From NCBI GenBank assembly GCA_944325885.1, contig CALVBT010000003.1:166251-230250 (forward strand): a stretch of DNA of 64,000 nucleotides, in the 5' to 3' direction. Every line of letters starts with the position of its first letter. The stretch's first letter is position 1. The stretch comes from Candidatus Gastranaerophilales bacterium. GTDB taxonomy: Bacteria > Cyanobacteriota > Vampirovibrionia > Gastranaerophilales > Gastranaerophilaceae. Positions 10,901-38,592 of the stretch are shown in pieces. A program made the translations under genes and the position numbers. The notes beneath the pieces are model-generated. The model made no database searches and was not told the DNA's origin. It worked only from the letters and a program-made list of their open reading frames with translations.

Positions 10901-13900
10901 GTAACAACACCGCCTGTTTGGGTATAATTTCCGGTAAAGTTTGTATTGTCACTTGTACCTGCGATTGTCACCTGACCGTTGCCGATGTTTACATTACCGT
11001 CGCCGGCTACATTACCTGCAATTGTTACTTTTGAGTTTTCATAAAAGTTAAACTTGGCGCCGGTTTCTTTTGTCGGGTCATTTTGTATTTCTGCACCGAT
11101 ATTGAGTGCAGCACCGCTGCTTATAGTTGTAGTGCTGCGTGCAACGAGTTCGGAACCGTTTTTCATATTCAAAGTACCGGCAGTAATGTTGTTTGTACCG
11201 CCGAAGAATTTACCAAATACGTTTGTTACACCTGCACCAATCTGGCTGAACACACCTGTGAATCCGCTCAAGTTCTGATTAGGATTATCCAGATTCAATG
11301 CGCCTTTGCCTGTCATTTCTACAGTACCGCTGCCTGCTGCACCGGAAACTATATCAAAATCGACATTAAGGTCGACTTTATTTGTTGAATCTGTCTGCAA
11401 TGTCAATTTTCCGGCATTGCTGCCCTGTGTGTCGCCTACAGTGATTTTATCTGAATTTACGACCGTTGTGTCGCCGATAATCATGTTGCCTCTGCCGGTA
11501 ATTGTGTTGATACCGTTTATGATTGCGCCTTCGTTTTTTGCAGCGTCAACAGTACCGCCTGTGATATTGTTTGTACCGCCAAAGAATTCTGTATTGGCTG
11601 CCAGTTCTGTTATACCGGCGCTGTGGTTGTATGTGCCTGTGTATTCGTTTTGGCTGGCAGATATTAACAATTTGCCGTCTGCTGTTTTGTTGATAGAAGC
11701 ATTGTCGCTGCCTTGAACACCAACATTCAATGTCAAATCAGAGGCTGTAGTATTTTCTATAGAAAGTGTACCGCCAGTTGTGAGGTTTATACCGGCTGTT
11801 GTGTCAATAGAAGACCCGTCAGTCAGCACAAACGAGCCGTCTTCTTTAATTGTATTCTGACCCTGAACAACAGAATTAGCGGCAAAAATAACACTGCTTG
11901 TACCGTTAGTAGAATCACCATCGCCGATTAAGTTTGTACCGTTAAAGAATTTTGCATCTTTAGAATCAGAACCCTCAAATTTAATCACACCACCGAAGTG
12001 ATTAAATTGTCCTTTAAAATCAGTGTTGTCAGAGGTAAAATTCAATGCGTCATCACGTTCTGTATTAGTGTTGCTGACATTAACTGTTCCGCCGCCCTCT
12101 GCATCTGCAGCTGATTTTAAATCAGCATTGAATGAGCCGCCTGTAATCGGAGAGCCGGAAGAATCTCTGTCATTCATAGAATCAGCATTAATATTCATTG
12201 TTGAATTATCGTTTATAGTAATAACAGAGCCTTCCTGAGCTACGGAGCCTGTTTCCATTGTCACGTTGTGGGCTTCGCCGTCAGAACCTATTACATAATG
12301 GCCGTTTTTTTCAAAACCGCCGTTTTCTCCAATCCAAGCGTTAAAGTTTACGCCTGCTTCAGCGCCTTCCGTGCCGCCGTCTATGAGGTTGTCTTTTAAA
12401 GTAACTTCTTCGAGAATAAATTGATGATTGCCAGCGTTTACTTTGTTTCCGTCAACAATTTGGAAAGACGAGCCAGCATCACCGATAACAAGATTTACTT
12501 CCTTTTTGGCAATAGTTACATCGGAAGATAGCTGCGCACCATCTCTAAATATAAAATTGCCGCCGGAAATTTGGTTTTTATCAGCGCCGCCGCCAAAGAA
12601 CGTACCGCCTTTAAGGATTTCTGTAGTACCGTTCTGTTGAGAGAAGGAACCAACATAGCCGCTTGCATTGCCTGCAATTTGAAGGTAAGAATCAGCATCG
12701 TTAATAGTTATTGATGAAGCTGCATCACCGGTAATTGCGCCTATTATAGCCTGATTTCCGTTTGCGGAAATATTAATTGTGCCGTCTGCGCCAGTTTCTG
12801 TTTTTAAGCCGTCATTACTGATAGTTATTTGTGTACCTGTTAAATTCAAATTAGAATCTGCTGTAGAAGAAGCATTGCCCATTGTAATTTGTGCGTTAGA
12901 AATATTATTTTCTCCGCCAAAAAGGCTGCCTTTTTCTATATCAATTGTACCGCCGTCTTGTGTATAAGACCCTTGATAGCCTGACATATCACCGTTGATA
13001 GTCATATTGTCGCCGTTCATAACAAGGCTGCCGCCATTGCCTGCACCTTTGATAGAACCCTGAGTGCCGCCAAGCGTAATATCTTGATTAATATTTACGG
13101 TACCGCCTGTGATATTGAGGCTGCCGCCTTGTTCGATAGAACTTTTGTTTGACAAATCTACCGTACCGCCTGCGATATTCATAGTGCCGTCAACAACAGA
13201 AGCGCTGATGTTTATATCCGCAGTAGTACCAGAAACATTCATTGTACCTTGCAGGTGAGAACCGGAATTTGCATTAAGCGTACCGCCTGTCATTGAGTTG
13301 AGTCCGCTTAATATTGCATCTGTCAAAGTGACGGTACCGGCTGACATTGTTGTATTTGCACCGGCCAAAGTACCTTGTACGTTAACGTTGCCGCCTGATA
13401 TAGTATTTGTACCTGTCAGGGTAGCATTTTCTTTTACGTTAACAGTACCGCCTGAGATATTGTTTTTACCGAGCGATGTAGTTACTGTTGTACCATCACC
13501 TATATCAAGAGTACCGGACTGCTGGTTCAGTGTACCGGTAAATGCATCATTGCTGCCGAGAATTGTTAGAGTAGTTCTGTCCGTAGCATGGTTAATAGTA
13601 CCACCGCCTGAAACGTTGTCATTTATTGTTGTATCGGCATTTATATCCATATTAGAGAAAGCCGCCAATGCAAGTTTAGAATCAGCAATAGCGTTTGCTG
13701 CATTTAAGACCAGTGACCCGCCCTGTATCTCGTGAGTATTAGTTCCGCCAAAGAATTTGCCTGTAGGGCCTACGGTAGTTTTTCCGGCTGTCTGGGTAAA
13801 TGTGCCTGCAAAATCGCTATTATCGCCGTTTAATATTACGTTTTGGGCGGAACTTGTAATTTGAGAGCCGTCAGCACCCTCTATAGAACCGCCAAAGGTA

Positions 13901-14739
13901 ATTGAATGGTCAGCACTTGTTCCTTGCAAATCCATAGAGCCGTTTGTGGTAAGATAAACGTCGTTGTATCTTTCATCATCCGTACCCACAGCGACCCTGT
14001 TGCCGGAGAAAGTGATATCAGCGACAGAGGCGTTTAATGTGATATCGTTTGCGTTGTAGATAGCACCGCCTGATGTTCCTGCTGTATTGTTTGTAAAGGT
14101 ACCGCCATTGATAACAACCTCACCATGAGAACCGTTGTGCAATGCACCGCCGGCGATTGCAGCAGAGTTACCGCTAAAATTTACACCTTCTTTGCTGAAA
14201 TTCATAACACCATCTGTGTTAACAGCACCGCCAGAACCTAGAGTCCCATCTGCGTTAGATGCAACGTTGCCGACAAAGCTTGCATATTTGTTAAAATTCA
14301 TAGTCGAAGTGTTATAAACAGCACCGCCTAGTGCTCGCGCTACCGAACTCAAGCCCACTCGGTTATTTTCAAAAAGAGTAGTACCGTTTATGTTAACAAC
14401 CTGACCGGGGCTTGAAAATGCCCAGTTTGGAGAAGCGACGTAAATAGCTGCACCGCTGTCTTGAGATTGGATATCTTTGAAAGTATAAGAGGCACTATCC
14501 AAAGTCAGCGTATAATCCTGCGTGTTGTTGCCGCCAATATTAATTATACCGCCCCATGGAGTGCCTCCTATAAATTCATGTGCCTCATCGAACACGATAT
14601 TGGTGCCGAAAGTATTTCCTGCATTACCCATATCAACACCTGGTGCCCACCCTGTAGGGTCGGCCAGAACCTTTGTACCAGACATTGCGCACAAAAGCAA
14701 GAATGATGCTACCATGCGCTTTGTTTTGGTTTTACTCAT
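7972..14739 (-). CDS. Giant autotransporter, Pmp-like right-handed beta-helix passenger
   Basis: The 2255-residue protein starts at the ATG at 14739, preceded by AAGGAG and followed by a signal peptide (MSKTKTKRMVASFLLLCAMS, cleavage near ALA-DPTG). The N-terminal passenger has GGAVYN/GGAIYN and F-x2-N motifs, as in chlamydial Pmp proteins. Next come about eight spaced units ending in FFGGTN or variants, each preceded by a G-[TSN]-[YF]-[TSN]-[QH] block. The region is rich in Asn, Gly, Thr and Ser, as expected for a beta-helix. The last ~290 residues are a beta-barrel domain ending in IGFSGGLNWKVGK. It should sit in the outer membrane and display the passenger, perhaps for adhesion. The barrel resembles that of the second autotransporter here (35347-38592). 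The terminal residue is Lys rather than the usual Phe or Trp. Confidence 0.9.
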   Translation of the reverse strand: MSKTKTKRMVASFLLLCAMSGTKVLADPTGWAPGVDMGNAGNTFGTNIVFDEAHEFIGGTPWGGIINIGGNNTQDYTLTLDSASYTFKDIQSQDSGAAIYVASPNWAFSSPGQVVNINGTTLFENNRVGLSSVARALGGAVYNTSTMNFNKYASFVGNVASNADGTLGSGGAVNTDGVMNFSKEGVNFSGNSAAIAGGALHNGSHGEVVINGGTFTNNTAGTSGGAIYNANDITLNASVADITFSGNRVAVGTDDERYNDVYLTTNGSMDLQGTSADHSITFGGSIEGADGSQITSSAQNVILNGDNSDFAGTFTQTAGKTTVGPTGKFFGGTNTHEIQGGSLVLNAANAIADSKLALAAFSNMDINADTTINDNVSGGGTINHATDRTTLTILGSNDAFTGTLNQQSGTLDIGDGTTVTTSLGKNNISGGTVNVKENATLTGTNTISGGNVNVQGTLAGANTTMSAGTVTLTDAILSGLNSMTGGTLNANSGSHLQGTMNVSGTTADINISASVVDGTMNIAGGTVDLSNKSSIEQGGSLNITGGTVNINQDITLGGTQGSIKGAGNGGSLVMNGDNMTINGDMSGYQGSYTQDGGTIDIEKGSLFGGENNISNAQITMGNASSTADSNLNLTGTQITISNDGLKTETGADGTINISANGNQAIIGAITGDAASSITINDADSYLQIAGNASGYVGSFSQQNGTTEILKGGTFFGGGADKNQISGGNFIFRDGAQLSSDVTIAKKEVNLVIGDAGSSFQIVDGNKVNAGNHQFILEEVTLKDNLIDGGTEGAEAGVNFNAWIGENGGFEKNGHYVIGSDGEAHNVTMETGSVAQEGSVITINDNSTMNINADSMNDRDSSGSPITGGSFNADLKSAADAEGGGTVNVSNTNTERDDALNFTSDNTDFKGQFNHFGGVIKFEGSDSKDAKFFNGTNLIGDGDSTNGTSSVIFAANSVVQGQNTIKEDGSFVLTDGSSIDTTAGINLTTGGTLSIENTTASDLTLNVGVQGSDNASINKTADGKLLISASQNEYTGTYNHSAGITELAANTEFFGGTNNITGGTVDAAKNEGAIINGINTITGRGNMIIGDTTVVNSDKITVGDTQGSNAGKLTLQTDSTNKVDLNVDFDIVSGAAGSGTVEMTGKGALNLDNPNQNLSGFTGVFSQIGAGVTNVFGKFFGGTNNITAGTLNMKNGSELVARSTTTISSGAALNIGAEIQNDPTKETGAKFNFYENSKVTIAGNVAGDGNVNIGNGQVTIAGTSDNTNFTGNYTQTGGVVTAQGGSTFFGAVQNLINKGKLIFANGQSDEEKANLASGINVELKGSTNLDDSTVTDKQAVLDLQGRTDAVFNGAMLYIDGKKTEGFKFTDGILENATLTGIQTIGDNAIVTLRGNNSGFVDGADVTINDGANVILGTGAQAANVSSIAVDSTLTLVSSNLTLDSEITGSGTINVEKDYREQYAPSIVVNGDKSTFKGTYTQDAGSVTVTTGSTFFGGTNTVTGDATKGTGGDLHLAKGSFLGDDITVTNSDPDNGGAFDPHGRVFIEDKIYDKNGVELTDINKLMEGNLYYNTKLDADGNLLTGELKHITIQNGGLILSNGTVFDGSQGTTVFEKNQNGGVVDIGFSNGSGVDGDIELKEDTMLSYGDGAYIKGDSILTMDGTSVLNFINDSETINYNPTIVGGGSIWKEGLGTTNISSAIDMTGQVKVTEGTLNFTNKDKVVFNGGGSDPKQDGSLTVGSDNTNAVINISANNTTFGGNVSANAQDGSQTVLNLKGANTTIGGTLTANNTASAITGNTTIGGNWTTSGDSTLSLLGGSANQIVVNRDFIVENVKDGQLPISFDYDPRGNRLDEIVVNGNYDSDSPLLITGINFITSPQDYTFDLSADRLFNISGTGEPEYAETSFYANTAMGRYFITGGGAAGSDLFGNLVYLNPQQYRGQVATIAAWQNQLLVNNLLFDHMNLVTRKLMDDEKTANKYAAAVPQIDPYQYSIKDGSLWYKAYGAFETLSMTKGLNVGNNAYGSLIGADFPLINLKHGWKLVPTAYIGYNGAHQHYNGVSMYQNGAQLGLMGTAYKGDFMTSLLAYGGGYGNDMTIRGGFGNASDNTGNWFAGVASKSAYNIRLPHDFIIQPTIMAAYNAFGQQNWGSDFGVMSMSSGMLNGLNVAPGVNFILQKKTFSLYAMAQLVYNVMGGVDGTAGNIDLGYVRMRHCYFEYGLGAMKQFKDRFTGYLQFTIRNGGRTGIGFSGGLNWKVGK

Positions 14740-14925
14740 TACTTCTCTCCTTGTATATTTATATAAATTAATTCCAGAAACACATAATTTAAGAAAATTA
14801 TACAAAATTATAACATTGTAATAAAAATAATGGAATAGACCAGAAAGAGTAGTGGTTTTAAGCTTTACAATTGTTAATTACATAAATGTAACAAAACAAA
14901 AAATCGAGTGTTGCACGACCAGTTT

Positions 14926-15645
14926 TTATATATTAGCACCGCCGTCTTTTTTCATTTTTTCCAGTGCTTTTTTTGCGCCCGTTGATTCTTTTGCCAGATT
15001 TATCACAAAGTCCGCAGCCTCTGCATCTCTGGCTATTGCCTCTTTTAGCGCAAGGATTTCTTCCACGCTCATTTCCCTTGTATCAGACATATTTTCAAGG
15101 TTTTCTTTAAAAAGTGCCTGTGCTTTTTCATCGTATCCGGGCAGGTTCTTTTTAAAACCGTACCATTTGTGAAACTGGTGAAGCATATAATACACATTTA
15201 TTTCGCCGTTTCGAAGAACAAACATTTCTCTTGAATTTAAAGACAAATGCAGTCTTTTTTGGGCAAAAAGACCTGTGACAAAGTTCAGATACAAGGCTTT
15301 CCATCCTTTAAGCGGCGTAATAAAGCCTTCTTCTTCTTTTATTTTTGCCAGAATTTTATCCGCATGAGGGATTTTATACACGGGTGTCCCTTTTTGCTCC
15401 ACAAAAGTAAGAAGCAATTCGGGATTTGTTTTACAGGCTTTTACTATATTCTTTAGCTCCTCATCCATTGTTTCCAGCAGTTTTTCCGTCTGAGAGGTGA
15501 GGGTCATTGTTTCTGATGCATTGATATGAGTTTTGCTTGTCGCATTGGTATAGGTTCGGGGCTTCATTTTTGCCATTGTTGCCTCGAGTTTTTTGCGCCT
15601 GCGCTCCAGTATATAACTCACGATTCTGTTTACAAATTTGTTCAT
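14926..15645 (-). CDS. Conserved hypothetical protein, alpha-helical
   Basis: This is a 239-residue protein that I do not recognise. I set the start at the ATG at 15645 (MNKFVNRIVSYILERRRKKL). A TATAAT box lies 10 nt upstream and there is no Shine-Dalgarno, so the message may be nearly leaderless. The N-terminal 25 residues form a basic amphipathic helix. The middle contains aromatic segments such as VYYMLHQFHKWYGFKKNLPG. The C-terminus is a charged helix rich in Glu, Lys and Ala. There is no signal peptide, membrane segment or obvious catalytic motif. It is divergent from the ABC-F gene. Confidence 0.75.
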   Translation of the reverse strand: MNKFVNRIVSYILERRRKKLEATMAKMKPRTYTNATSKTHINASETMTLTSQTEKLLETMDEELKNIVKACKTNPELLLTFVEQKGTPVYKIPHADKILAKIKEEEGFITPLKGWKALYLNFVTGLFAQKRLHLSLNSREMFVLRNGEINVYYMLHQFHKWYGFKKNLPGYDEKAQALFKENLENMSDTREMSVEEILALKEAIARDAEAADFVINLAKESTGAKKALEKMKKDGGANI

Positions 15646-22419: not shown

Positions 22420-24285
22420 TTACTCTTGTGTCATGACTCTTCTTGCGATTTCAAAATCAGGCAGGTCGTTACCCTCTTTTATATCAAGCGGGTTCGGGTT
22501 CTTCATCCAAAAATCTATGGAATCTTTGCGAATATAATGTTTTGCCTTTTCCGTAATGATATCTGTAATCTCCTGTTTTGTTTTTTCGCCGTAATCCTCC
22601 AGCTTGCAAAAGCCAAGAACCTTTTGGAAATTTAATTTCATCACATAAAACGCATCCTGCATGCCGGACTCATCGGGTTTTGGCTGAGTTTCCGGCGGAT
22701 TTTGAGGATAACCTGCATTTGAAGAAGACAAATCAAATTTTTCGTCCGCAACACTGTACTTTAATTTTGCGGCATTCTTTTCGCCGATTACAGGCTCCAA
22801 TTCTTTTATATCCTCTTTTGTAAGCATATAGCCGTCATGGTAGTTGTCCACAGACAAAGACACGGGCCTGTAAGAGGCTCTCATATTCACACGGGCATTG
22901 CACCCGTCAGAATCCAGAGGAATATCTATATTCGGCACAACAAAACCGTTCTGGAAGAGCAAAACTTCTCTCAAAGTGAGCGGGCGTGTTTTGTCCTTTC
23001 TGTGTTCGGACAGGTAATAAAGCGTATATTTTAAAACATCTACAGTGCCTTTTACATCAGAAAAAGCATCGTGAGCGTTTTCCATATTCCTTGCAAAAAG
23101 ATAAGTATACTGTTTGGAAAGCTTTTTAGACGCTCCGACATAAGGGTGAATCCGCTGCATTAACAAAAACGGGTCAAGAACTTTAAAATACCGCTTAGGT
23201 TTCAATTCATCTGCCGAAAACTCGTTGTGGTCACGGATTGCGTTATTAAGCATGGTAATATCAAACTTTGAATTGTACGCAACAATAATACCGTTTTTCT
23301 TATTCAAATAATCATTAACAAAAGGTTTTAACACCTTTTCCATAACAGGAGCATCTGCCACATCATCGTCATACAGCCCGTGGACTGCACTTGCGCCTTC
23401 AGGGATATGGATTTCAGGATTTATCAGCTGATTGAAAGCGGATTCCGGTACAATTTTTCCGTTCTTAAGCTGAATTGCGCCTATCTGAATAATTTTATCA
23501 AGCGGCTTTGTTTCGTCATCAATATTTGTGCCTGTGGTTTCCGTATCAAAGACAACCGCATCTATACACAATCTGCCCTGTGCATCCGTAACAGGTTTGT
23601 CCAGTGATTTGTGGTGTTTTGTGTCAAGAAGGTAAGCAATGTTTGTGGCAAAAGATTTGTCACGATATACATCCCCTCTCAAGGCTTTTGACGGCGGCTC
23701 TTTTGCTTTTCTTGAACAAATAGAATGCAGTGTTGCCAGAGGCTTTTTACAGTTTGTGTAATTAAAACGTCTTACCCAGCTTGTTTCATAGCCTTCTGCC
23801 AGCGCATTTGCCTGCAAAAAAACATAATACTGCTCTGGTGTTGCGCTTTCCCAGTCCAGAGGCTCTGTCAACAGTTTGCTGCTGCCGACTTTATTAAAAT
23901 CGTACCACTCCGGAGTGCCGATTTCATTGCGTTCCATAAGCCCCAGCCCCTGAAACTCTTTGCCTTCGACATTTTTTGTATAATTGTTTTCAAAAAAATC
24001 ACCCTTAAAAGAAATATAGGAGCTGTTCTTTTTCATACTGCCCGAGGCCCAGACAAGATTCTGCTGTTTTTGCTCCGGACAATTTCGATTAAGATTATCA
24101 AGCACAGACTTTGGCAGATAGGGCGACGGCAGCACAGGTGTAACAAACTGGGTAACGACCCCGTTTTGCTTAACCGTGACCTGCGGTTTGAAATTTTTTA
24201 CGGCCATAATTTTATCGTTTTTGGCCTTTGGTTCAACCTTTGTTTCTAATTTATTATCAAAATCAACACCGAGAATTTTCATCAT
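22420..24285 (-). CDS. DEDDh 3'-5' exonuclease with a novel N-terminal domain
   Basis: The 621-residue protein contains a DnaQ/RNase T-type exonuclease at about 242-425: FDTETTG (Asp247, Glu249), YNSKFD (Asp342) and HDAFSDV (His405, Asp410), a complete DEDDh set. The ~240 residues before it match nothing I know and contain YISFKGDFF (90-98), the motif shared by several proteins here. The ~200 residues after it are also unassigned. The ATG overlaps the stop of the upstream phospholipase-D-like gene (ATGA), so the two are translationally coupled. It should remove nucleotides from 3' ends of DNA or RNA; whether it acts in the cell or elsewhere is unknown. Confidence 0.85.
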   Translation of the reverse strand: MMKILGVDFDNKLETKVEPKAKNDKIMAVKNFKPQVTVKQNGVVTQFVTPVLPSPYLPKSVLDNLNRNCPEQKQQNLVWASGSMKKNSSYISFKGDFFENNYTKNVEGKEFQGLGLMERNEIGTPEWYDFNKVGSSKLLTEPLDWESATPEQYYVFLQANALAEGYETSWVRRFNYTNCKKPLATLHSICSRKAKEPPSKALRGDVYRDKSFATNIAYLLDTKHHKSLDKPVTDAQGRLCIDAVVFDTETTGTNIDDETKPLDKIIQIGAIQLKNGKIVPESAFNQLINPEIHIPEGASAVHGLYDDDVADAPVMEKVLKPFVNDYLNKKNGIIVAYNSKFDITMLNNAIRDHNEFSADELKPKRYFKVLDPFLLMQRIHPYVGASKKLSKQYTYLFARNMENAHDAFSDVKGTVDVLKYTLYYLSEHRKDKTRPLTLREVLLFQNGFVVPNIDIPLDSDGCNARVNMRASYRPVSLSVDNYHDGYMLTKEDIKELEPVIGEKNAAKLKYSVADEKFDLSSSNAGYPQNPPETQPKPDESGMQDAFYVMKLNFQKVLGFCKLEDYGEKTKQEITDIITEKAKHYIRKDSIDFWMKNPNPLDIKEGNDLPDFEIARRVMTQE

Positions 24286-26312
24286 CCTACCATATCCATT
24301 ATTTTTGCGCCGGACATTTCTGACGGATAAGCCATGTCAAAGGCTTTTTTCTGTATTTTGTCGTATTCCGGTTCCGAGTGTTTCCAGTCTTTATCAAACT
24401 GTTTTAAGAACACTCTTGCCAGAGCAGGTTTTTCAAAAGCCACAGCAGCCTCGTTATTGCCTCTTTTGTATTTTTCTTTTGCATTGTTTCTGTCTATTAT
24501 AATTTTATAATAGCCTTTGATAGTGTTGAGGTTAGAGCGGTCTTTGACCGTAAAATTATAGACCTTATCCTGCAGTTTTAAAGAGGCAGAGCCTGTTTCA
24601 TTGATTTCGTTTACTGCTTTTTTTATTTTTGCACGGCGCACCAAAACCTCTTTGTAATCCAGTTTTTTCCTTATTAAAGGCGGCAGCCCGACAGCCTCTT
24701 CAGCCGGTTCTACCTTTTTCATATAGTCGACAATTTCTCTGTTTATTTGTTCTGTATAGTTTTCGTAGTCTTCTCTCTGGCCTTTTTTGAGATTCTGGTT
24801 CATTGCCATGGCAGACCAGTTTGCCGACCCTATCAAAACCTCTCTGTCATCAAAGACAGCCCATTTTCCGTGCATACGCTGGGTAATTTTTTCATCTGTT
24901 TTGTACTGTCTTACATCTATTTTGTTTTCAACAAGTTTTTGATAAGCAGTATTGCAATACGGAAACTCCTCGATAATCGACGGGTCAACTATAATTTTTG
25001 CATCGAGTTCTCCCTTGTGAACACGGTCAATGATGGTCTGTATAATCTCTTTGTCAGACAGAACAAACAGCTCTGCTCTGAGTTTTTTCGCTGTTTTGAC
25101 CTTATTCATAACATAGGCTCTTATTGACTCGCTGCCTGTTTCGCCTATATAAGCAAGCTCTCTTGGCTTTGTGGAAAGGACTTTTATCACCGGATTAGCA
25201 ACAGGATTCCTTTTTATCAAATCAAGTTTTGAGAGGTCTTTTTCATCGTATCTGTTTTTGTCAACATCGTTGTCATAAAGCTCACCGACAATCTTCATAT
25301 AATCGACATTTTCCTGTTTAATTTCTTTGTTCAACCCTTTATAAAACTGCTGCTCATCCTCGCTCAGCGGCCCTGCAACAATCTTTGTCCTGCCGAGTCT
25401 TTGCCATGCAAAAGCCCAGTCCTTGTTAAAAATTTCCGTAAGTATATTGTCAACCTCGGAATTTTTATTCTCAGGTCTTGTTTCTATTGCAACGCAGGCA
25501 TCGTGGTTTGCTGTAGAATGTGTACCCCAGTTCATACCGCCTATTATGAGTTTTTTGCCGTCTACAGCCACGAGTTTTACGTGCTGCAAAGCAGACCCGC
25601 CCTGCGCCGGACGAGGATAAGGCACAACGTCGATTCCGTTTGTTTTTAAGAAACGAATCATATCCTGATTGTTGTAATGTCTGCGTTTTTGGCCGTTGCC
25701 GTCAATATACCATTTGTGAGCATCGAGTATAATCTGGACTTTTAAATCAGGATTTTCCTTTTTCTTTTTCATTATCATAGGCAAAAGGCTGTTGTGCTGT
25801 TCAAAGCCCGCTACCATATCAGCCCCGTTGGCAGGCCAGATATGGCGGTCGATTGACGGATGCTGAAACTCGAACATCTCTATCTGTATAGAATCTCTCG
25901 CACTTTTTATAAATTCTGCAGCTTTATCAAAAATCTGTTCCCCGTCTATCAGTGTAGTGACATTGGTTTTGCCGACCATAGCTGTTTTTGAGGGTTCCGG
26001 CATAACCTGCGGAACATAAGACAAAGACGGGATATTTGCAAGCAGCCAGTCCGTTCTGGAGAGGCCTGTTTCGTCAGCTTTTTTAGCTATTTTTTGTGCA
26101 ACCCAAAACGCTATATCCTCTAATGCAACCGGTCTGTCTTTTCTTGGTGTTTTTACCTTTGGCGGCGGGATTCTGTTTTGATAAGGATTATTATTAGAAT
26201 TATTATAAGAAGAATTTTTTGCACCAAAAGCAGGATTCTGCCCGTGCAAAAAATAAACACGTGATACCTGTGATGCACTGACCATTGGCGTTACAGCAAG
26301 ACTGCTCTTCAT
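24282..26312 (-). CDS. Phospholipase D-like protein with two HKD motifs
   Basis: The 676-residue protein carries two intact HKD motifs, His244-Lys246-Asp251 (HVKLVAVD) and His481-Lys483-Asp488 (HGKWAVFD), each followed by N-W-[GS]. This arrangement makes one active site in PLD-superfamily phosphodiesterases (phospholipases, cardiolipin synthases, nucleases). There are no membrane helices, which argues against cardiolipin synthase. The N-terminus has NPAFGAK at 26-32, followed by a low-complexity Asn-rich linker. The C-terminal 140 residues are Lys-rich and unassigned. The stop overlaps the exonuclease start (ATGA). It could hydrolyse lipid or nucleic acid; the sequence alone does not decide. 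Confidence 0.85.
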   Translation of the reverse strand: MKSSLAVTPMVSASQVSRVYFLHGQNPAFGAKNSSYNNSNNNPYQNRIPPPKVKTPRKDRPVALEDIAFWVAQKIAKKADETGLSRTDWLLANIPSLSYVPQVMPEPSKTAMVGKTNVTTLIDGEQIFDKAAEFIKSARDSIQIEMFEFQHPSIDRHIWPANGADMVAGFEQHNSLLPMIMKKKKENPDLKVQIILDAHKWYIDGNGQKRRHYNNQDMIRFLKTNGIDVVPYPRPAQGGSALQHVKLVAVDGKKLIIGGMNWGTHSTANHDACVAIETRPENKNSEVDNILTEIFNKDWAFAWQRLGRTKIVAGPLSEDEQQFYKGLNKEIKQENVDYMKIVGELYDNDVDKNRYDEKDLSKLDLIKRNPVANPVIKVLSTKPRELAYIGETGSESIRAYVMNKVKTAKKLRAELFVLSDKEIIQTIIDRVHKGELDAKIIVDPSIIEEFPYCNTAYQKLVENKIDVRQYKTDEKITQRMHGKWAVFDDREVLIGSANWSAMAMNQNLKKGQREDYENYTEQINREIVDYMKKVEPAEEAVGLPPLIRKKLDYKEVLVRRAKIKKAVNEINETGSASLKLQDKVYNFTVKDRSNLNTIKGYYKIIIDRNNAKEKYKRGNNEAAVAFEKPALARVFLKQFDKDWKHSEPEYDKIQKKAFDMAYPSEMSGAKIMDMVG

Positions 26313-26382
26313 ACCCTTAACCCCTTGCTTAATATTTTTATTATGACCACATGCGAGAAAACTTACAACCCTTCGTTAAGAA

Positions 26383-26694
26383 TTATTTATTGTTCACTTT
26401 TTGCTGTTGAGCAGAACGTTTTTCCTGCGCCAATTTCAATCTTTTTACCATCAACTCGTTCATCTTATTCAAATACTCTTGCATCTGCGCAACAGAAGCC
26501 TTTTGCGGGTCTGGTTTGTTGCGTTTAAAAGAGTCCATCTCGGCTTTTAAGATACTGTCCCTCTGTGCAAAAGTAAGCTGCTCCACCTTTGGTTTTGCAA
26601 AACGTTCTACAGTCCTGCCGCCTTTGTTTGCACAACCTGCGAGCAATCCGCTGCAGCCTATCAACGCACCCATAACAATATTTTTTACTCTCAT
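26383..26694 (-). CDS. Small lipoprotein with a helical, Gln/Lys-rich body
   Basis: The 103-residue protein has a lipoprotein signal peptide with lipobox LAGC (Cys21). A mature part of ~80 residues follows, predicted as charged helix (QMQEYLNKMNELMVKRLKLA). I prefer the ATG at 26694 over a GTG two codons upstream because AGGAG is then 9 nt away. It is probably anchored to a membrane, and its length and composition are reminiscent of small OmpA- or SmpA-independent helical lipoproteins. No function can be given. It lies 70 bp upstream of the PLD gene, with which it may be transcribed. Confidence 0.78.
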   Translation of the reverse strand: MRVKNIVMGALIGCSGLLAGCANKGGRTVERFAKPKVEQLTFAQRDSILKAEMDSFKRNKPDPQKASVAQMQEYLNKMNELMVKRLKLAQEKRSAQQQKVNNK

Positions 26695-26870
26695 TACCAC
26701 AGACTCCTGTCTAAACTAAAAGAACCATTAACATCCGGCTTGTACCAAAGCCGCCAATATATCTATTAAATAATAATACATGCCGGTGCATTACACAAAC
26801 GGAACAAAATATTTGTTACAAAATTTTCACATGCGCCAAAATCAACTGCAAAAAATGTTATAAATAAATT

Positions 26871-28268
26871 ATGCAAATATCACCTGTTTCTAAATATAAT
26901 TTATATAGAAAAAAACTGCCGGCAGCGGGCTTAAACAGCACCGGCCGACCCCAAAATTTCTCTGCCGAAGGCCTTACGCAAAAGACAATCACAGGACAGG
27001 CAAAAGCATTTTCCGCTGTGTCATTCAGGGCATCTTTGCTGAAAGAAACAATTTTTCAAGGTCAATTCAAAACTGAGGCAATGACACCTAAAAACCCGAA
27101 ATGGCAGCTTGCGGTGACAAGGTTCAGCCCTCTTGAACACAGAAAAAATGATATAAGAACAGAGTTTGAACGTGACAGAAACAGAATAATGCACTCCGAA
27201 GGCTTTGACCGCCTGCGTTTTAAAACACAGGTATTTCCGATGGCTGAAAATGACATGATTTCAACAAGAAGCTCCCATGTTATTCAGGTGACAGATATTG
27301 CAAGAAACATAAGCCGAAAACTCGGGCTGAATGAAGACCTCGCCGAAGCTATTGCACTGGGTCACGACATAGGCCATTCACCCTTTGGACACGACGGTGA
27401 AAAAACACTCAAAGCAATCTGTATAAACAATGGTCTTTCGCCATTCTGGCACGAAAAAAACAGCCTCAGAATGGTCGACAAAATCCTTACCCTAAAAAAC
27501 AGCTGGGGCAAAGAAAATAACCTCGGACTCACCTATGCTGTGCGTGACGGAATAATAAACCACTGCGGCGAAATAGACGAAAACTTTATAAAACCACGTG
27601 ACGAGTTTAAAAACCTCTCCAGACTCCAGTCCCCAGGACAGCTGCAACCATTTAGCTGGGAAGGGATTGTTGTAAAAATCTCCGACAAAATTGCATACCT
27701 CGGCCGTGATATAGAAGATGCAACAAAAATCGGGATTTTAACGGACAAAAACCAGAAAGATTTACAGGCGATTATGAAAAAGCATATCCCTGATTTTGAA
27801 GGACAGGTCAACAACACAGTGCTTATGAACACTTTTGTCACAGACATTGTAAAAAACTCCTCGCCTCAAAAAGGCATAGGATTCTCAAAGCCGGTTTTTG
27901 ACCTGATGAATGACATAAAAAAATATAATTATGAACACATATACCTTATAAAAGGTGCAAAATCCGTTTCACAGGAACAGTGCGACCTTGTTCTCGGCAC
28001 GATTTTTGACAAATATTCTTCAATGTACAGGGGAAAAGACACGCTGAAATTTTTGGACAAAGCCTCTCAGAGCAGCAAATATATTAAAAATTTCAGAAAC
28101 TGGATAGTAAAATACACGGACAACGACGAGCGGTCAAAAGAGTTTGAAAACGCTGTTATCTATGACCTGTCGAGCCATAAGGATTACAAACAGGCCATTG
28201 TGGACTATATTTCCGGTATGACTGACAAATACGCACTAAAAACTTATAATAATTTATGTAATCAATAA
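26871..28268 (+). CDS. HD-domain dNTP triphosphohydrolase-like protein
   Basis: The 465-residue protein resembles dGTPases: FERDRNRIMHSEGFDRLRFKTQVF, split as RDRNRIMHSEGFDRL then RFKTQVF, TRSSHVIQVTDIAR (His136), and the HD pair in ALGHDIGHSPFGHDGE (His165, Asp166, His169, His174). dGTPases release triphosphate from dNTPs, controlling nucleotide pools or starving phages. An ~85-residue N-terminal extension absent from ordinary dGTPases contains SAVSFRAS at 48-55, a variant of the F-G tag. No Shine-Dalgarno precedes the ATG, and TATAAA lies 6 nt upstream, suggesting a leaderless message. It is divergent from the lipoprotein/PLD/exonuclease group. Confidence 0.88.
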   Translation: MQISPVSKYNLYRKKLPAAGLNSTGRPQNFSAEGLTQKTITGQAKAFSAVSFRASLLKETIFQGQFKTEAMTPKNPKWQLAVTRFSPLEHRKNDIRTEFERDRNRIMHSEGFDRLRFKTQVFPMAENDMISTRSSHVIQVTDIARNISRKLGLNEDLAEAIALGHDIGHSPFGHDGEKTLKAICINNGLSPFWHEKNSLRMVDKILTLKNSWGKENNLGLTYAVRDGIINHCGEIDENFIKPRDEFKNLSRLQSPGQLQPFSWEGIVVKISDKIAYLGRDIEDATKIGILTDKNQKDLQAIMKKHIPDFEGQVNNTVLMNTFVTDIVKNSSPQKGIGFSKPVFDLMNDIKKYNYEHIYLIKGAKSVSQEQCDLVLGTIFDKYSSMYRGKDTLKFLDKASQSSKYIKNFRNWIVKYTDNDERSKEFENAVIYDLSSHKDYKQAIVDYISGMTDKYALKTYNNLCNQ

Positions 28269-30207: not shown

Positions 30208-33039
30208 ATGGCTATTGAAAACATTAGCTTTGGTAAAGGTCTCTTTAACAGAACTGAAAAAAGCAAAAAACAAAACAAAAACGTTCAGGTTCCTGAACAA
30301 ATGACAACAACAAAAAACAATCGCAAGCATGTAAACCTTGCGCCGTATCTTGCTGCAGCATTAATGATTCCGGCCGGCGGTGCTACATTGACAAGCTGCG
30401 TAGAACAAACTGTATCAGTTGATGAATCAGCTACTCAGCAATTGCTCGCTGAATTGTTGAAAACACAACAGGAATCTTTAAAAATTCAACAACAGATGTT
30501 GGAATATTTGAAAAACAATGATTCACAAAATACTCAATTAATGAATCTGTTAAAACAGATGATGGAACAGAACCAGCAAATTTCTAACATCCTTTCCGGT
30601 ATTGCAGGAGATGTAAGCCAGATTGCAGGAGCTGTTGTTCAAATTTCAGCTATGATGGAAACAGCTAACGCAAATGATGAAGAACTTCTAAACAAAATTG
30701 ACCAAATTATTGCAGGTCAAGGTTCAGATTCAGAAAAATTACAACAGTTAATTGATTTGAATGCTGAACAAAACAATTGGCTGGCTAATATCTTCGGTTT
30801 GATTGAAACAGCTAACCAGTTTGATGAAAAATTGGGTGAAACATTACAAAACTTCTACAATGACTACAGAACAAACTCTGATGAATTTAAAGAAAATGCT
30901 CAAGATCATACAACAATGATGAACCTGATTTATGAAGCATTGCTTTCAAATAATGAAATCAGCACAGAAACATTGAATGCAATCAAAAATATCCAGAACA
31001 GCAATCAAGCTGATTCTGCAAAATTGGATGCAATCATCAAATTGTTAGAAAGCATTGACTCTAAACTCGACAAGTTGCAAGAAGGTATCGACAACATTGG
31101 CGATAACATCACTGTTAATGATGAATCATTAAAAGAAATCTTAACAGAATTCCTCAATCAATACAAAGCTGACAAAATTACTGACCACGAATTGTTAAAT
31201 AATATAATAAATGCATTCAATCAATCAAATATCAACGATCAAGAACTTTTGAACAAATTGAATGATATTCAAGCTCAAATTGCAAGCGGTCAATTGGCTG
31301 TAAGCGAAGGTATCGACAAGATTACAGATTTGTTGAACCAAATTAAAAGCAGCCTTGATCAAATTGTTTCAGAACTTCAATCAATTGCTGAACAATTGGG
31401 TGACAACTTTATGGTTGACGGCAAACCTCTTGCACAACTTGTAAAAGAATTTATGGAAATGTACAAAGCAGGTACAATTACAACAAACGGTTTGTTAACA
31501 GAAATCAACAACAAAATCCAACAAGGTTTGGACAATGATAATGCAAACAACGCAGGCATCCTCGCAAAACTCGATGAAATCTCACAAAAGATTTCTAACG
31601 GACAGATGAGTATAGAAGAAGGTATGTCTAACATCTCTGATATTTTGAACAGCATCAATGGAAATATCCAAAACATAAGCGGTCAATTAAGCACAATTTC
31701 TTCTCAAATCGACAAAGGAATTGACCAGTTAAACAAAAATCACAATGAAACTCTTGATATGTTGTCTAATATCAACAACGGTATAGGCTCTATCGACAGC
31801 AAACTGAATGATATCAAAGCAAATCAAGAAATTTCTAACGATAAATTAACAGATATTTCTAACAAAATAGATGAAGCTAACGCACAACTCGGTCAAATCA
31901 ACCAGAAAACAATATCTATTGACCAGTTAAAAGAAATGCTTGGACCAATGTTTGATGAAATCAGCAATGACTTAACAATAATCGGCGGCAACCAGGTTTC
32001 TATTGAAGATCTTGATCAACTTCTTGATAAATATAAAACAGATCTTACAACAACAAACGGTCTGATTGAAAACTTGACATCCGTTGTAAGAAACCTCGAC
32101 CTCTCTGTTGATATGGGCGAAGGATTCCAGGGTATAATCGACGCAATCAACGACTTCAAAAACCAGCAGGCTGGTACAGCTGAACAGCAAATGGCTGCTT
32201 ACAGAGAAATTATGGCAGCTATCGCTAACCTCACAAGCAGCGTAGACGCTCTCGGTACTACAGCTAAAGAAATCAGCACAGATCTCAAAGCACATATGGC
32301 TCAGGCTACTGATTACGGTCAGTTGATGACAGATTATATGCTCGAAGTAATCAATGGTCAGCAAACAAGCCTCGATGCAATGCAAGAAGCTGCTGACAGC
32401 TACAGAGAATACCTCACAAGAGCTGAACAAGACAGAGCGCAGCAAATCGCATTACTTCAGGCTATAGTTGACAAAGAAGTTGGTACAAACGGCGGCGGTT
32501 TGACAAAAGAAGAACTCGAAGAAGTTCTCTCTAACTATCAAATCAACATCCCTGACTACTCAGACATTCTGAATGCTATTTATGAACAACTCGGTAATGT
32601 TATCACCAGTGATGATTTACAAAACTTCTACATCAACACAAGACCTGACCTCACTACAACAAACGCTTTGATTGAAAACTTGACTTCTGTATTAAGAAAC
32701 AAAGACTTTACAATCTCCGGCGACGTACAGGTCAATATGGATCAAGTAGAAAAAATCCTTGGTGATATCCAGAGCTTGATAAGCAATCAGCAGACACCTA
32801 CAGCAGATCAAATCAGCGCATTGATTCAATTAGTTACACAAATCGCTGACAGCACTTCTCAAGGCGGTGACACAACAAGAACTGTTGCTAGTGTAGAACC
32901 TCAAAGAACTAAAAAACCGGCCTTTGATATGGAAAAACTCTATGCTAACCTCAACAGACTGTCTATAGAAGCTGCTAAAGCTCAAGGCAAACCTGCTACA
33001 TACTATGTAAATCCGGAAATGTTCACATTAAACGCATAA
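30208..33039 (+). CDS. Large coiled-coil lipoprotein with tagged, extended N-terminus
   Basis: The 943-residue protein begins MAIENISFGKG, carrying the F-G tag, then a ~30-residue basic Lys/Asn region. A hydrophobic segment LAPYLAAALMIPAGGA and a lipobox-like LTSC (Cys64) follow. This looks like a lipoprotein signal peptide with an unusually long n-region. The rest is Gln, Asn, Asp, Ile and Leu-rich heptad-like sequence with repeated segments such as LLNKLNDIQAQI and two copies of LTTTN[GA]LIENLTSV (about residues 612 and 812), so long coiled coils are expected. It is probably a fibrous envelope protein. AAGGAG precedes the ATG and a terminator follows. Synonymous codon use shifts part-way, which may reflect repeat duplication. 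Confidence 0.8.
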   Translation: MAIENISFGKGLFNRTEKSKKQNKNVQVPEQMTTTKNNRKHVNLAPYLAAALMIPAGGATLTSCVEQTVSVDESATQQLLAELLKTQQESLKIQQQMLEYLKNNDSQNTQLMNLLKQMMEQNQQISNILSGIAGDVSQIAGAVVQISAMMETANANDEELLNKIDQIIAGQGSDSEKLQQLIDLNAEQNNWLANIFGLIETANQFDEKLGETLQNFYNDYRTNSDEFKENAQDHTTMMNLIYEALLSNNEISTETLNAIKNIQNSNQADSAKLDAIIKLLESIDSKLDKLQEGIDNIGDNITVNDESLKEILTEFLNQYKADKITDHELLNNIINAFNQSNINDQELLNKLNDIQAQIASGQLAVSEGIDKITDLLNQIKSSLDQIVSELQSIAEQLGDNFMVDGKPLAQLVKEFMEMYKAGTITTNGLLTEINNKIQQGLDNDNANNAGILAKLDEISQKISNGQMSIEEGMSNISDILNSINGNIQNISGQLSTISSQIDKGIDQLNKNHNETLDMLSNINNGIGSIDSKLNDIKANQEISNDKLTDISNKIDEANAQLGQINQKTISIDQLKEMLGPMFDEISNDLTIIGGNQVSIEDLDQLLDKYKTDLTTTNGLIENLTSVVRNLDLSVDMGEGFQGIIDAINDFKNQQAGTAEQQMAAYREIMAAIANLTSSVDALGTTAKEISTDLKAHMAQATDYGQLMTDYMLEVINGQQTSLDAMQEAADSYREYLTRAEQDRAQQIALLQAIVDKEVGTNGGGLTKEELEEVLSNYQINIPDYSDILNAIYEQLGNVITSDDLQNFYINTRPDLTTTNALIENLTSVLRNKDFTISGDVQVNMDQVEKILGDIQSLISNQQTPTADQISALIQLVTQIADSTSQGGDTTRTVASVEPQRTKKPAFDMEKLYANLNRLSIEAAKAQGKPATYYVNPEMFTLNA

Positions 33040-35346: not shown

Positions 35347-38300
35347 CTAATTGCCCAATGCCCATCTAAAACCAAGAGTAAACGCAATACCGTTACGTCC
35401 GCCGTTTCTGAGCATTGCCTGTCCAAAGCCTGTAAATCTGTCACCGTAGCGTTTTTGCAAACCTACACCATATTCAATATAAGGTTTTACAGAAAGCTCT
35501 GACAAAGCAACCTCGTTTGCATAGAATTTTGTTTTATCCATAATGTTCCATGTCATGTTTACACCCAAATATGGCTGCCAGCCGTTTTTGAGGTTTCCGA
35601 TGATTCTGATACCCGGAATAATTTCTATAGCATGCAACGGGTCTTGAGAAATTCTTACACCGGAAGCACTGTTGTAATCAAATACGTTTACAAAAGTGTA
35701 GCTCATCATATAGCTGGGTTGAACAATAACTTTGTTCTTAAACAAATTCCAGTTATATCCTGATTTCCAAGCTGCACCGGTCATCAAGATAGGGAAGTCA
35801 TCTGCACCGAAAGAGTGTGTAGCTCTAGCAGCACTGGCACCTATATTGGCTGTGATACCAGTCCAGAAGTTGCCTTTGTATGCAGTAGCAACACCGCCGA
35901 TTGTACCACCGTTTTGATAAATGCTTACGCCGTTATAAGCCTGATGCGATCCGTGGTAAGCACCAAAGAATGAGAAGTTTCCATCCCAGCCATGACCAAG
36001 GTCAATAAGGTCGGATTCACCGCCGAACAGTGAGCCGTAAGATACGTTAGAAACTTTCGGGCCGTTCTTTAACGGTACATTTTCAAAGTTTGTAAACGGA
36101 CGCATATACCAGCCGTCACGTTCTTCCGGTATAACGTTAGGAGCATAAACACCTGTATGATAAGCGCTAGCGTATTTGTTTCTCATCTTCCATGCCATAC
36201 GCTGTTCCGGAGTCATCAGTGTAACCAAATCCATATTGGCAAATGACTGTCTATACAGGTTATCCATTACGAGGAAAGCACCTTGTGCAGCTACCGCACC
36301 TGATATAGCTGGGTCAGAATTGCCTATTTGCGTAAACTGGAAGTATTCGCCTGCAGCCGTGCCGTCAGCACCCGGCTGATACTGTGTAATATGTTCTACT
36401 TTATATTTATTTATAGGAGCCTGTACAACATTGGCACCCTGTCCGAGCTGTACATGGTCAATTAATTTATCAGAATCCGTAAACAGAATTTTTACCGTAT
36501 CTTCTTTTGCCTCGGAAACCGATGCCATTTGTGAAACAGTAAGCATTGCATCAGGGTCAACAGTTCCTACGTGTACATTGCTGTCCAGCAAACTGTCCAT
36601 AGAAGGAGTGCCGCCTGTGTATTTACCGCCCAAATCCACATCCAGCTGAATATTAGTGTCACCGTGCAGATTCAACTGCTGAACAGCAAGCTGATTTGGG
36701 CCGAATTCGTTGTTTAACAAATCCAGTGTACCGCCATAAAGGTTCAATACGTTACCGTTACCGCCGTTTGCTGTAGTACCGAGTCCGCTGTCATGGTCAA
36801 AGGACAGTGTACCGTTTCTTAAAGATATATTTGAATTTCTGATAGTTGCATTGCCTTTGATTGTAACAGTACCTGTTGAAGCAAGGCTTTGAGAGCCTGA
36901 CTGGAAGTTTCCATTTATCTCAAGTTCTGTTGCAGCAGGGTCAGTGCCTGATCTTGTACCTTCAATATTTGAATATATATTAAGGTTTCTGCCGGCTGAT
37001 GCCTGCAATGAAGCATTAGCACCGTTAGCAAAAGCCAGCGAGTCAGTATTGTTTGCAATACTGTTTTCCGTACCGACATTCATATCTTTGTTTTGCGCGC
37101 GCAATACTGTAGTAGAGTTGGCTGCACCGTATACTGCACCGCCGTTTACTGCGGTATTGGCACTGTTGCCTGAAAAATCACTGTCGATAACGTTTACTGT
37201 ACCGCTTGCGTTATATATTGCACCGCCTGAGGTTGCTGTATTATTTGTAAATGAAGAGTTGCTGATTGTAGCAACGCTTGCCGCTTGAGTGTTTTGGCTT
37301 TCATTATAGATAGCACCGCCATTTGTTGTTGTAATAGTTTGTGTAGATGGTACGGTAACTTCTTTCGAGCCGCCATTATTGTTAAATACAGCATGGTCGA
37401 CATTTAATGTACCCTGGTTGGAAATAGCACCGCCTCTGCCAGCTGTGTTGCCTTCAAAGACAACCTGATTTCCCTGAGAGCCGTTGATATTAATAATACC
37501 GTTTGTATCACCGTCATCCGGGTTATTAGCTGTAGCGTTAGATATTGCACCGCCCCTGCCGGATACAGCATAGTTGTTTACAAATCTAGAGCCGGAATTA
37601 ATATTAATAGTGTTTGAATAGCTTTCACTTCCGCCTGCTGCACCGGAACCGCCTGCGTTATATATAGCGCCGCCGCCTGTTGTAGCGTAGTTATTTTCAA
37701 ATAATGTATTATTAATTGTTAAATTAATATCATGACCTGCTACTGTAGTGCCTGTACCTGTAACCCTTAACGATGTAGCAATTGCACCGCCAAAGTCTGT
37801 TGTATTATTTCCTGTAAATGACGAATTAGAAATAACCATATCAGCAGCGTTCAGTATCGCACCACCCTGTCCTGCTGAGGCTGTGGTTTGGTTTCCATTA
37901 AAACTGGTGGAATCAATATTGACCATACCGCCAAGGTTAATAATAGCACCGCCGAATGCTCTGGAAGAGTTGTTATTAAACTCGGAATTAGAAATGTCTA
38001 AAGCAACACCGCTAGCCGTACTCTGGTTAAAGATAGCACCGCCAAGACCGTAGCCAGAACCAAGAGCCTGGTTGTTTTCAAAAATAACATTATCAAAAGA
38101 AGCAACACCAACACCGGTATTTGTAACAGCACCGCCGTTACCGCCGTTTGTACTGCCTGCAATGTTATTTGAAAAATGAGCTTTATTATTCGGGTCTGTA
38201 GAATAAACATTTAAATTTGCAGTGTTTCTTATTGCACCGCCATTGCCTTCTGTAAGATTTCCGCCTTCAAAATTTGTGTTTGTGATAACAGTATTTGCAT

Positions 38301-38592
38301 CAGGCACGTTATTGATAATAAAATTGCCTGTTGATGCTGCACTGTCAGCAGATATCGTATGGCCGTTGCCGTTTATCAAAGTCATTCCGCCCGGAACAGG
38401 TGGTGTACCTAGGTTCAGAGCTGTTCCGCCGGTATTCATGTCTCTTTCAATATTAACAGTACCGGTAGTATTTGCCTCTTCTTGAGCCTGAGACCAATCA
38501 GTAGCTGCCATTGCAAAGCCTGAGCCAAGCAAAAACACTGCCAGAGATAGGACTGCAATCTTTTTGATTTCTTTTACTTTCGTTTTTCTCAT
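35347..38592 (-). CDS. Autotransporter with Pmp-like GGAI/FxxN passenger
   Basis: The 1081-residue protein has a signal peptide (ending FAMA-ATDW). Its passenger of ~730 residues contains about twelve GGA[IV] motifs and many F-x-[NG]-N motifs (FENN, FNNN, FTGN, FSGN), the pattern of polymorphic outer-membrane beta-helix proteins. The C-terminal ~300 residues are a beta-barrel ending TLGFRWALGN. The barrel aligns with that of the 2255-residue autotransporter: both have YGSL.G, AYNGVS.YQNG and R.GGR.GI. It should export its own passenger across the outer membrane. The passenger lacks the FFGGTN units of the larger protein. A weak GGAA lies before the ATG. Confidence 0.9.
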   Translation of the reverse strand: MRKTKVKEIKKIAVLSLAVFLLGSGFAMAATDWSQAQEEANTTGTVNIERDMNTGGTALNLGTPPVPGGMTLINGNGHTISADSAASTGNFIINNVPDANTVITNTNFEGGNLTEGNGGAIRNTANLNVYSTDPNNKAHFSNNIAGSTNGGNGGAVTNTGVGVASFDNVIFENNQALGSGYGLGGAIFNQSTASGVALDISNSEFNNNSSRAFGGAIINLGGMVNIDSTSFNGNQTTASAGQGGAILNAADMVISNSSFTGNNTTDFGGAIATSLRVTGTGTTVAGHDINLTINNTLFENNYATTGGGAIYNAGGSGAAGGSESYSNTININSGSRFVNNYAVSGRGGAISNATANNPDDGDTNGIININGSQGNQVVFEGNTAGRGGAISNQGTLNVDHAVFNNNGGSKEVTVPSTQTITTTNGGAIYNESQNTQAASVATISNSSFTNNTATSGGAIYNASGTVNVIDSDFSGNSANTAVNGGAVYGAANSTTVLRAQNKDMNVGTENSIANNTDSLAFANGANASLQASAGRNLNIYSNIEGTRSGTDPAATELEINGNFQSGSQSLASTGTVTIKGNATIRNSNISLRNGTLSFDHDSGLGTTANGGNGNVLNLYGGTLDLLNNEFGPNQLAVQQLNLHGDTNIQLDVDLGGKYTGGTPSMDSLLDSNVHVGTVDPDAMLTVSQMASVSEAKEDTVKILFTDSDKLIDHVQLGQGANVVQAPINKYKVEHITQYQPGADGTAAGEYFQFTQIGNSDPAISGAVAAQGAFLVMDNLYRQSFANMDLVTLMTPEQRMAWKMRNKYASAYHTGVYAPNVIPEERDGWYMRPFTNFENVPLKNGPKVSNVSYGSLFGGESDLIDLGHGWDGNFSFFGAYHGSHQAYNGVSIYQNGGTIGGVATAYKGNFWTGITANIGASAARATHSFGADDFPILMTGAAWKSGYNWNLFKNKVIVQPSYMMSYTFVNVFDYNSASGVRISQDPLHAIEIIPGIRIIGNLKNGWQPYLGVNMTWNIMDKTKFYANEVALSELSVKPYIEYGVGLQKRYGDRFTGFGQAMLRNGGRNGIAFTLGFRWALGN

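What the first reader, a model, noticed from the sequence alone, without database searches (positions are those of the whole stretch)
22420..28268. Clustered nuclease, PLD and dNTPase, each with the tag
Three degradative enzymes lie together: a DEDDh exonuclease and a PLD-like protein whose genes overlap (ATGA), and an HD dNTPase-like protein, with a lipoprotein between. All three enzymes have non-standard N-terminal extensions with the tag. Nucleic acid, lipid and dNTP hydrolysis together would suit an effector arsenal or an anti-phage module, but both are inference.
Basis: inference. Interest (0 to 1): 0.6.

Follow-up and report, generated by a model that had tools for sequence, protein, structure and literature searches.

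The report
Tagged three-enzyme DNA-degrading gene module
A gut relative of cyanobacteria carries three enzymes predicted to destroy DNA or its building blocks, inherited together as a unit that turns up in different genome positions, each with the same short front-end tag, which suggests they are sent to one common but still unknown destination.

Summary
In Ca. Gastranaerophilales, a two-HKD PLD protein and a DEDDh exonuclease form a two-gene unit found side by side in all 30 loci I read, down to 31-36% identity. A dGTPase-type HD protein adjoins it in 19 of 30, in three arrangements, and co-occurs with it even when unlinked. It is a second paralogue; an untagged housekeeping dGTPase is also present. 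The lipoprotein is not conserved. Flanks mostly differ, and the module is in only 27 of 286 genomes of the order, so it is accessory. Catalytic residues are conserved. The tag is real: each enzyme has a variable, predicted-disordered N-terminal extension ending in an S/A-F-[K/G/A]-[A/G] motif. The same tag marks several percent of this genome's proteins, seven-fold over control segments. Best reading: a DNA/dNTP-destroying module sent to one place by the tag. Where is open: export through the flagellar-type type III gate (present in all 272 genomes tested) is slightly ahead of a cytoplasmic anti-phage role. Neither is shown: no defence-island context was found, and the tag does not keep the spacing of a flagellar export signal.

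The parts
22420..24285 (-). DEDDh exonuclease, 621 aa, second gene of the two-gene unit
   Evidence: PF00929 E 2.9e-19; D247, E249, D342, H405, D410 invariant in 21 homologues; fold nearest PolC/DnaQ exonuclease, then TREX1
24001..24285 (-). N-terminal extension of the exonuclease, ending in the tag (ISFKG, 24001-24015)
   Evidence: residues 1-95 predicted disordered; F93 invariant in 21 homologues
24282..26312 (-). Two-HKD PLD-superfamily protein, 676 aa, first gene of the unit
   Evidence: PF13091 E 1.3e-28; H244/K246 and H481/K483 invariant; fold nearest PLD, vaccinia F13, PLD3/PLD4
26187..26312 (-). N-terminal extension of the PLD with the tag (PAFGA, 26220-26234)
   Evidence: residues 1-42 predicted disordered; F29 nearly invariant
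26871..28268 (+). Tagged dGTPase-type HD protein, 465 aa, divergent from the PLD gene
   Evidence: PF01966 and PF13286; PADLOC dGTPase E 8.7e-56; HD residues invariant in 17 homologues; profile matches dGTPase structures, best 1.1e-49
26871..27032 (+). N-terminal extension of the HD protein with the tag (VSFRA, 27018-27032)
   Evidence: absent from the housekeeping paralogue; tag-like motif in 24/24 module-type homologues
26383..26700 (-). Lipobox-bearing ORF, 105 aa; NOT part of the conserved module
   Evidence: no Pfam match; no homologue in any other locus held

Best explanation
The three enzymes are one accessory functional module that destroys DNA and its precursors. The PLD protein and the DEDDh exonuclease act together on nucleic acid: the PLD as a nuclease of the two-HKD kind, the DEDDh enzyme chewing from 3' ends. 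The tagged dGTPase paralogue removes dNTPs so that the DNA cannot be remade. The shared N-terminal tag is a lineage-specific targeting signal that brings all three to the same place. My first choice for that place is outside the cytoplasm, through the flagellar-type type III export gate found in every genome of the order that was tested; a site inside the cell, for defence against phage, is close behind. Shown here: real genes, conserved linkage, co-occurrence, conserved catalytic residues, a real and conserved tag, predicted disorder of the extension, presence of the export gate. Inferred: nucleic acid rather than lipid as the PLD substrate, joint action, tag as targeting signal, destination.
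For: PLD and exonuclease adjacent on one strand in 30/30 loci, HD next to them in 19/30 in three arrangements, with mostly different flanks. Co-occurrence of PLD and module-type HD in the genus 15 both, 0 PLD only, 1 HD only, 7 neither (p 3e-5) and over 53 genomes 21/7/1/24 (p 1e-7), including genomes where they are unlinked. Catalytic residues conserved. Tag on the module-linked HD copy but not on the unlinked second copy of G244 nor on the housekeeping dGTPase. Tag enrichment 36 against 5; extensions predicted disordered up to or just past the tag.
Against: No activity, partner or location was measured. PLD folds of lipid-acting enzymes fit equally well. HD is missing next to the unit in 11 of 30 loci and altogether in several distant genomes. 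Co-occurrence p-values ignore relatedness. The tag also marks proteins that look cytoplasmic or membrane-bound, so one common destination is not obvious.
Confidence: 0.5

Rival explanations
1. Exported effector set (the more specific form of the best explanation): the tag is an N-terminal export signal read by the flagellar-type type III apparatus, and the enzymes act on the DNA and dNTPs of another cell or on DNA outside.
For: FlhA-family gate protein in 272/272 genomes of the order and FliP in all 21 class members tested, including genera with only the shorter FlhA type. Disordered N-terminal extensions, many beginning with a short hydrophobic stretch, recall the two-part signal of early flagellar subunits (PMC8983047). 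A tagged 5'-nucleotidase-like protein has no signal peptide. No immunity gene is conserved beside the module.
Against: Flagellar signals need about 26-30 residues between the two parts (PMC8983047); here the Phe lies anywhere from about residue 6 to 93. Tag density does not follow FlhA type (p 0.40). Class and phylum outgroups with an FlhA gate show no tag excess (small samples). A tagged protein with a lipobox (window 30208-33039) would use the Sec route. Tagged AAA ATPases need ATP, hence a cytoplasm.
Confidence: 0.35
2. Cytoplasmic anti-phage module: nucleases cut incoming phage DNA and the dGTPase starves its replication; the tag holds the enzymes together or at one site in the cell.
For: PADLOC dGTPase, DEDDh and DrmC-like models match. 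dGTPases are known anti-phage effectors, e.g. in Clover (PMC12265719). Patchy distribution, 27 of 286 genomes and 12 of 50 genera, in varying places. In one locus (L120) an integrase-like and a transposase-like gene lie nearby.
Against: 100 neighbouring proteins give only scattered, mostly generic PADLOC hits. Domain models also match housekeeping relatives. DISARM and Clover partners are missing. No copy in phages, plasmids or viral contigs. The family was found only in this order, unlike most defence systems.
Confidence: 0.28
3. The PLD acts on phospholipids, and the exonuclease and dGTPase are nucleotide-salvage enzymes that merely share a location and a tag.
For: Best single fold match is annotated phospholipase D (7e0m, Z 32.6); phosphatidylserine synthases reach Z about 25.
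Against: The PLD's tightest genetic partner is a nuclease; PLD3/PLD4 nucleases score within 2-3 Z units; no lipid gene is in the conserved unit.
Confidence: 0.1

Closest known systems
Bacterial dGTPase-type anti-phage effectors, including Clover CloA (PMC12265719)
   Same: HD dGTPase fold and conserved HD residues; accessory distribution
   Different: No CloB nucleotidyltransferase in the conserved unit; paired with a PLD and a DEDDh exonuclease; N-terminal tag; restricted to one order as far as found
DISARM DrmC (PLD-like)
   Same: Weak match to the second HKD half (PADLOC E 2e-12)
   Different: Two HKD halves in a longer protein; no DrmA or DrmB models among the neighbours
Animal PLD3/PLD4, TREX1 and SAMHD1
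   Same: Same three enzyme types: two-HKD nuclease fold (Z about 30), DEDDh exonuclease (Z about 16), HD dNTPase
   Different: About 12-18% identity for the first two; the exonuclease is nearer to PolC/DnaQ and the HD protein to bacterial dGTPases; an analogy of function, not a shared origin
Two-part export signal of early flagellar subunits (PMC8983047)
   Same: Hydrophobic residues at the extreme N-terminus in many cases plus a second motif within a flexible N-terminus
   Different: Distance between the parts is not kept; cargo would be enzymes, not rod or hook subunits; export untested

Membership tests
PLD superfamily, two-HKD | Two HxKxxxxD motifs | tested here: met
   H244/K246/D251 and H481/K483/D488; the H and K invariant, the D nearly invariant, in 21 homologues
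PLD superfamily, two-HKD | Nuclease (PLD3/4-like) rather than lipid substrate | tested here: inconclusive
   Fold matches of both kinds at similar Z; no assay possible
DEDDh exonucleases | Five DEDDh catalytic residues | tested here: met
   D247, E249, D342, H405, D410 invariant in 21 homologues
dGTPase / HD dNTPase | HD metal-binding motif and dGTPase-family profile | tested here: met
   H136, H165-D166, D272 invariant in 17 homologues; dGTPase structures to E 1.1e-49
dGTPase / HD dNTPase | dNTP hydrolysis | not testable with these tools
   needs purified protein
Clover defence system | Partner nucleotidyltransferase CloB next to the dGTPase | tested here: not met
   The genes conserved beside the HD gene are the PLD and exonuclease genes; no such domain among the window neighbours scanned
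DISARM | DrmA and DrmB with DrmC | tested here: not met
   No DrmA/DrmB model among 100 neighbouring proteins
Anti-phage defence system in general | Protection against phage | not testable with these tools
   needs plaque assays
Flagellar type III secreted proteins | N-terminal hydrophobic signal at least about 26 residues before the docking motif | tested here: not met
   Phe at residue 12 in some HD homologues and at 6-10 in several other tagged proteins; spacing rule from PMC8983047
Flagellar type III secreted proteins | Export gate present in the genome | tested here: met
   FlhA family 272/272 genomes of the order; FliP 21/21 class members tested
Flagellar type III secreted proteins | Secretion shown by experiment | not testable with these tools
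   no proteome or secretion data at hand

The most novel reading that the evidence does not exclude
The tag is a previously undescribed, order-specific protein-targeting signal in non-photosynthetic cyanobacterial relatives of the gut, read by a flagellar-type export apparatus that is kept even in genera lacking the longer FlhA type, and this module is one of its cargo sets: a nuclease pair plus dNTPase delivered out of the cell, parallel in function to the animal PLD3/TREX1/SAMHD1 enzymes.
Probability: 0.2. Interest if true: 0.9.

Novelty: new variant of a known kind. Interest (0 to 1): 0.6.

Why it matters
Each enzyme family is known, but I found no report of this combination or of the tag in the papers searched. 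If the tag is a sorting signal, many uncharacterised proteins in a common but little-studied gut lineage could be assigned to one pathway at once, and this three-enzyme unit offers cargo with assayable activities to test it. If the module is anti-phage instead, it would be a new pairing of two nucleases with a dNTPase.

Tried and rejected
Lipoprotein as a fourth member: matches only this genome's own sequence. Defence-island context: PADLOC on 100 neighbours gave scattered, mostly generic hits such as AAA, radical-SAM and methyltransferase models. DISARM and Clover: partner genes missing. Module on phages, plasmids or viral contigs: none; one phage PLD at 27% identity. Higher tag density in genomes with the longer FlhA type: no difference (p 0.40). 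Tag as an exact copy of the flagellar two-part signal: spacing not kept. Tag outside the order: no excess in samples of about 100 kb each from G356, G293, G304, G294, G302; weak negatives. Transfer between genera from G222 (PLD 82% identical although another genus): left open, because threonine dehydratase of that draft genome is also unusually close (92%), so a mixed assembly is possible. Module linked to the longer FlhA type by genus (10/28 against 2/22, one-sided p 0.03): genera counted by eye and not corrected for relatedness, so I give it no weight. ORFs were taken from the leftmost start codon, which blurs tag positions. Literature searches for a tag or a secretion system in this lineage found nothing relevant, within an open-access library only.

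Full report
What is there. The window lies in a draft genome of Ca. Gastranaerophilales (window = G000:C3:166251-230250; relatives named). Three genes fit the description: a DEDDh exonuclease-like protein (22420-24285, -), a two-HKD PLD protein (24282-26312, -) overlapping it by four bases, and a divergent dGTPase-type HD protein (26871-28268, +). A small ORF with a lipobox lies between PLD and HD.

Conserved unit. I read 30 loci with the PLD gene: the window, 15 from genome contigs and 14 from more distant genomes, out to other families of the order. In all 30 the exonuclease gene follows the PLD gene on the same strand, usually within 20 bases (in one locus, L125, both are broken into fragments). 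The HD gene adjoins them in 19: divergent in 16, upstream on the same strand in one (L116), downstream on the same strand in two (L120, L121). The script's label for L032 and L116 is wrong because those ORFs overlap; the coordinates show the arrangement. The flanking genes mostly differ from locus to locus; only L041 shares the window's flank. The lipoprotein occurs in no other locus.

Co-occurrence. In the genus, 15 genomes have both the PLD and the module-type HD protein, none has the PLD alone, one (G008) has HD alone, seven have neither (Fisher p 3e-5). In G011, G014, G017 and G021 the HD gene is not next to the PLD, yet both are kept. Adding 30 genomes of the order gives 21 both, 7 PLD only, 1 HD only, 24 neither (p 1e-7). 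These p-values ignore relatedness, and the 30 were chosen by me with PLD-positive genomes over-represented. first counted G152 as having the HD protein; its copy proved to be an untagged, unlinked relative, so the revised table is the one to use. The module is accessory: the PLD is in 27 of 286 genomes and 12 of 50 genera. Its identity pattern does not follow that of glutamine synthetase, which hints at transfer between lineages, though draft-genome mixing cannot be excluded.

Not housekeeping. Every genome of the genus but G013 and G017 shows, besides or instead of the module-type protein, a separate dGTPase of about 360 aa, about 40% identical; its N-terminus in G000 shows no tag before the domain. 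In G244 the module-linked HD copy carries the tag and a further unlinked copy does not, and the only close HD relative in G152, also unlinked, is untagged. So the tag goes with the module, not with the enzyme family.

Enzymes. Catalytic residues are invariant or nearly so over 17-21 sequences of each family. The AlphaFold model of the PLD (mean pLDDT 79) matches a phospholipase D (Z 32.6), vaccinia F13 (about 31) and the nucleases PLD3/PLD4 (about 30); this does not settle nucleic acid versus lipid. The exonuclease model matches PolC and DnaQ exonuclease domains best (Z 20-18), then TREX1 (about 16). The HD profile matches bacterial dGTPase structures. The likeness of the trio to PLD3/TREX1/SAMHD1 is an analogy of function, not of descent.

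The tag. In the exonuclease the model is disordered over residues 1-95 and ordered from 96; the tag Phe is residue 93. In the PLD residues 1-42 are disordered and the Phe is residue 29. The Phe is invariant in 21 aligned exonucleases and present in at least 20 of 21 PLDs, whereas the rest of the extension varies in sequence and length. Many extensions also start with a short hydrophobic stretch such as MKILPV, MLLPV or MKISAV. In the sampled part of the genome, 36 of 372 proteins of 200 aa or more carry the motif in the first 100 residues against 5 in residues 101-200; on the count filtered for hydrophobic leaders, 34 of 522 are tagged against a shuffle mean of 16 and maximum of 25. Clear tags occur in other genera of the order, including those lacking the longer FlhA type; I saw no excess in small samples from outside the order. 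Most tagged proteins have no Pfam match; others include AAA ATPases, CheR-like, kinase-like and phosphatase-like proteins and a 5'-nucleotidase-like protein without a signal peptide.

Where the tag could lead. All 272 genomes of the order tested have an FlhA-family export-gate protein, and FliP is present in all 21 class members tested; cyanobacterium-like G294 has neither. G000 has two full FlhA types, one of them in a FliF-FliH-FlhA-ATPase operon, and a stand-alone FlhA cytoplasmic domain. Early flagellar substrates use an N-terminal hydrophobic signal plus a downstream docking motif (PMC8983047), which the tagged extensions recall. But the required distance is not kept, tag density does not follow FlhA type, and several tagged proteins look cytoplasmic or membrane-bound. 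Export is therefore possible and unproven.

Anti-phage alternative. PADLOC finds dGTPase, DEDDh and DrmC-like models, and dGTPases are known effectors (PMC12265719), but partner genes of DISARM and Clover are missing, the neighbourhood is not a defence island, and no phage, plasmid or viral copy was found.

Verdict. A real, conserved, accessory, tagged three-enzyme module, most likely acting on DNA and dNTPs. Its destination and target are the open question, and the tag is the more unusual part of the finding.

Noticed in passing
G000:C12:9441-11417 (operon L140:7889-15260), G000:C5:79094-81091, L097:12383-13843: Every genome of the order tested has an FlhA-family export-gate protein; there are two full-length types, the shorter-scoring one in a compact FliF-FliH-FlhA-ATPase operon and the only full type in many genera, plus a stand-alone FlhA cytoplasmic-domain protein beside a PSP1-domain gene.
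   Followed up: partly
window 30208-33039 (+): A 943-aa protein with the tag at residue 8 (ISFGKG) followed by a hydrophobic stretch and a lipobox near residue 61, so a tag upstream of an apparent lipoprotein signal.
   Followed up: partly
L092:1539-3008 (-): A tagged protein with calcineurin-like and 5'-nucleotidase C-terminal domains but no signal peptide, although this family is usually secreted.
   Followed up: no
L115:3817-5382, L117:4035-5639: Tagged AAA ATPases lie within a few kb of the module in two different lineages (G152 and G039), a possible further partner.
   Followed up: no
L229 (G244:C32:39992-41239), L228 (G152:C1:224223-225428): A third kind of dGTPase, 45-49% identical to the module's, without the tag and not linked to the PLD.
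   Followed up: partly
L120:524-1624 and 12223-14974: In G244 the module lies near an integrase-like gene and transposase-like genes, judged by sequence only.
   Followed up: no
L125:5767-9416: In G050 both PLD and exonuclease are split into fragments with runs of N in the assembly.
   Followed up: no
window 7972-14805 and 35347-38592 (-): Very large ORFs (2277 and 1081 aa) starting with signal-peptide-like sequences.
   Followed up: no
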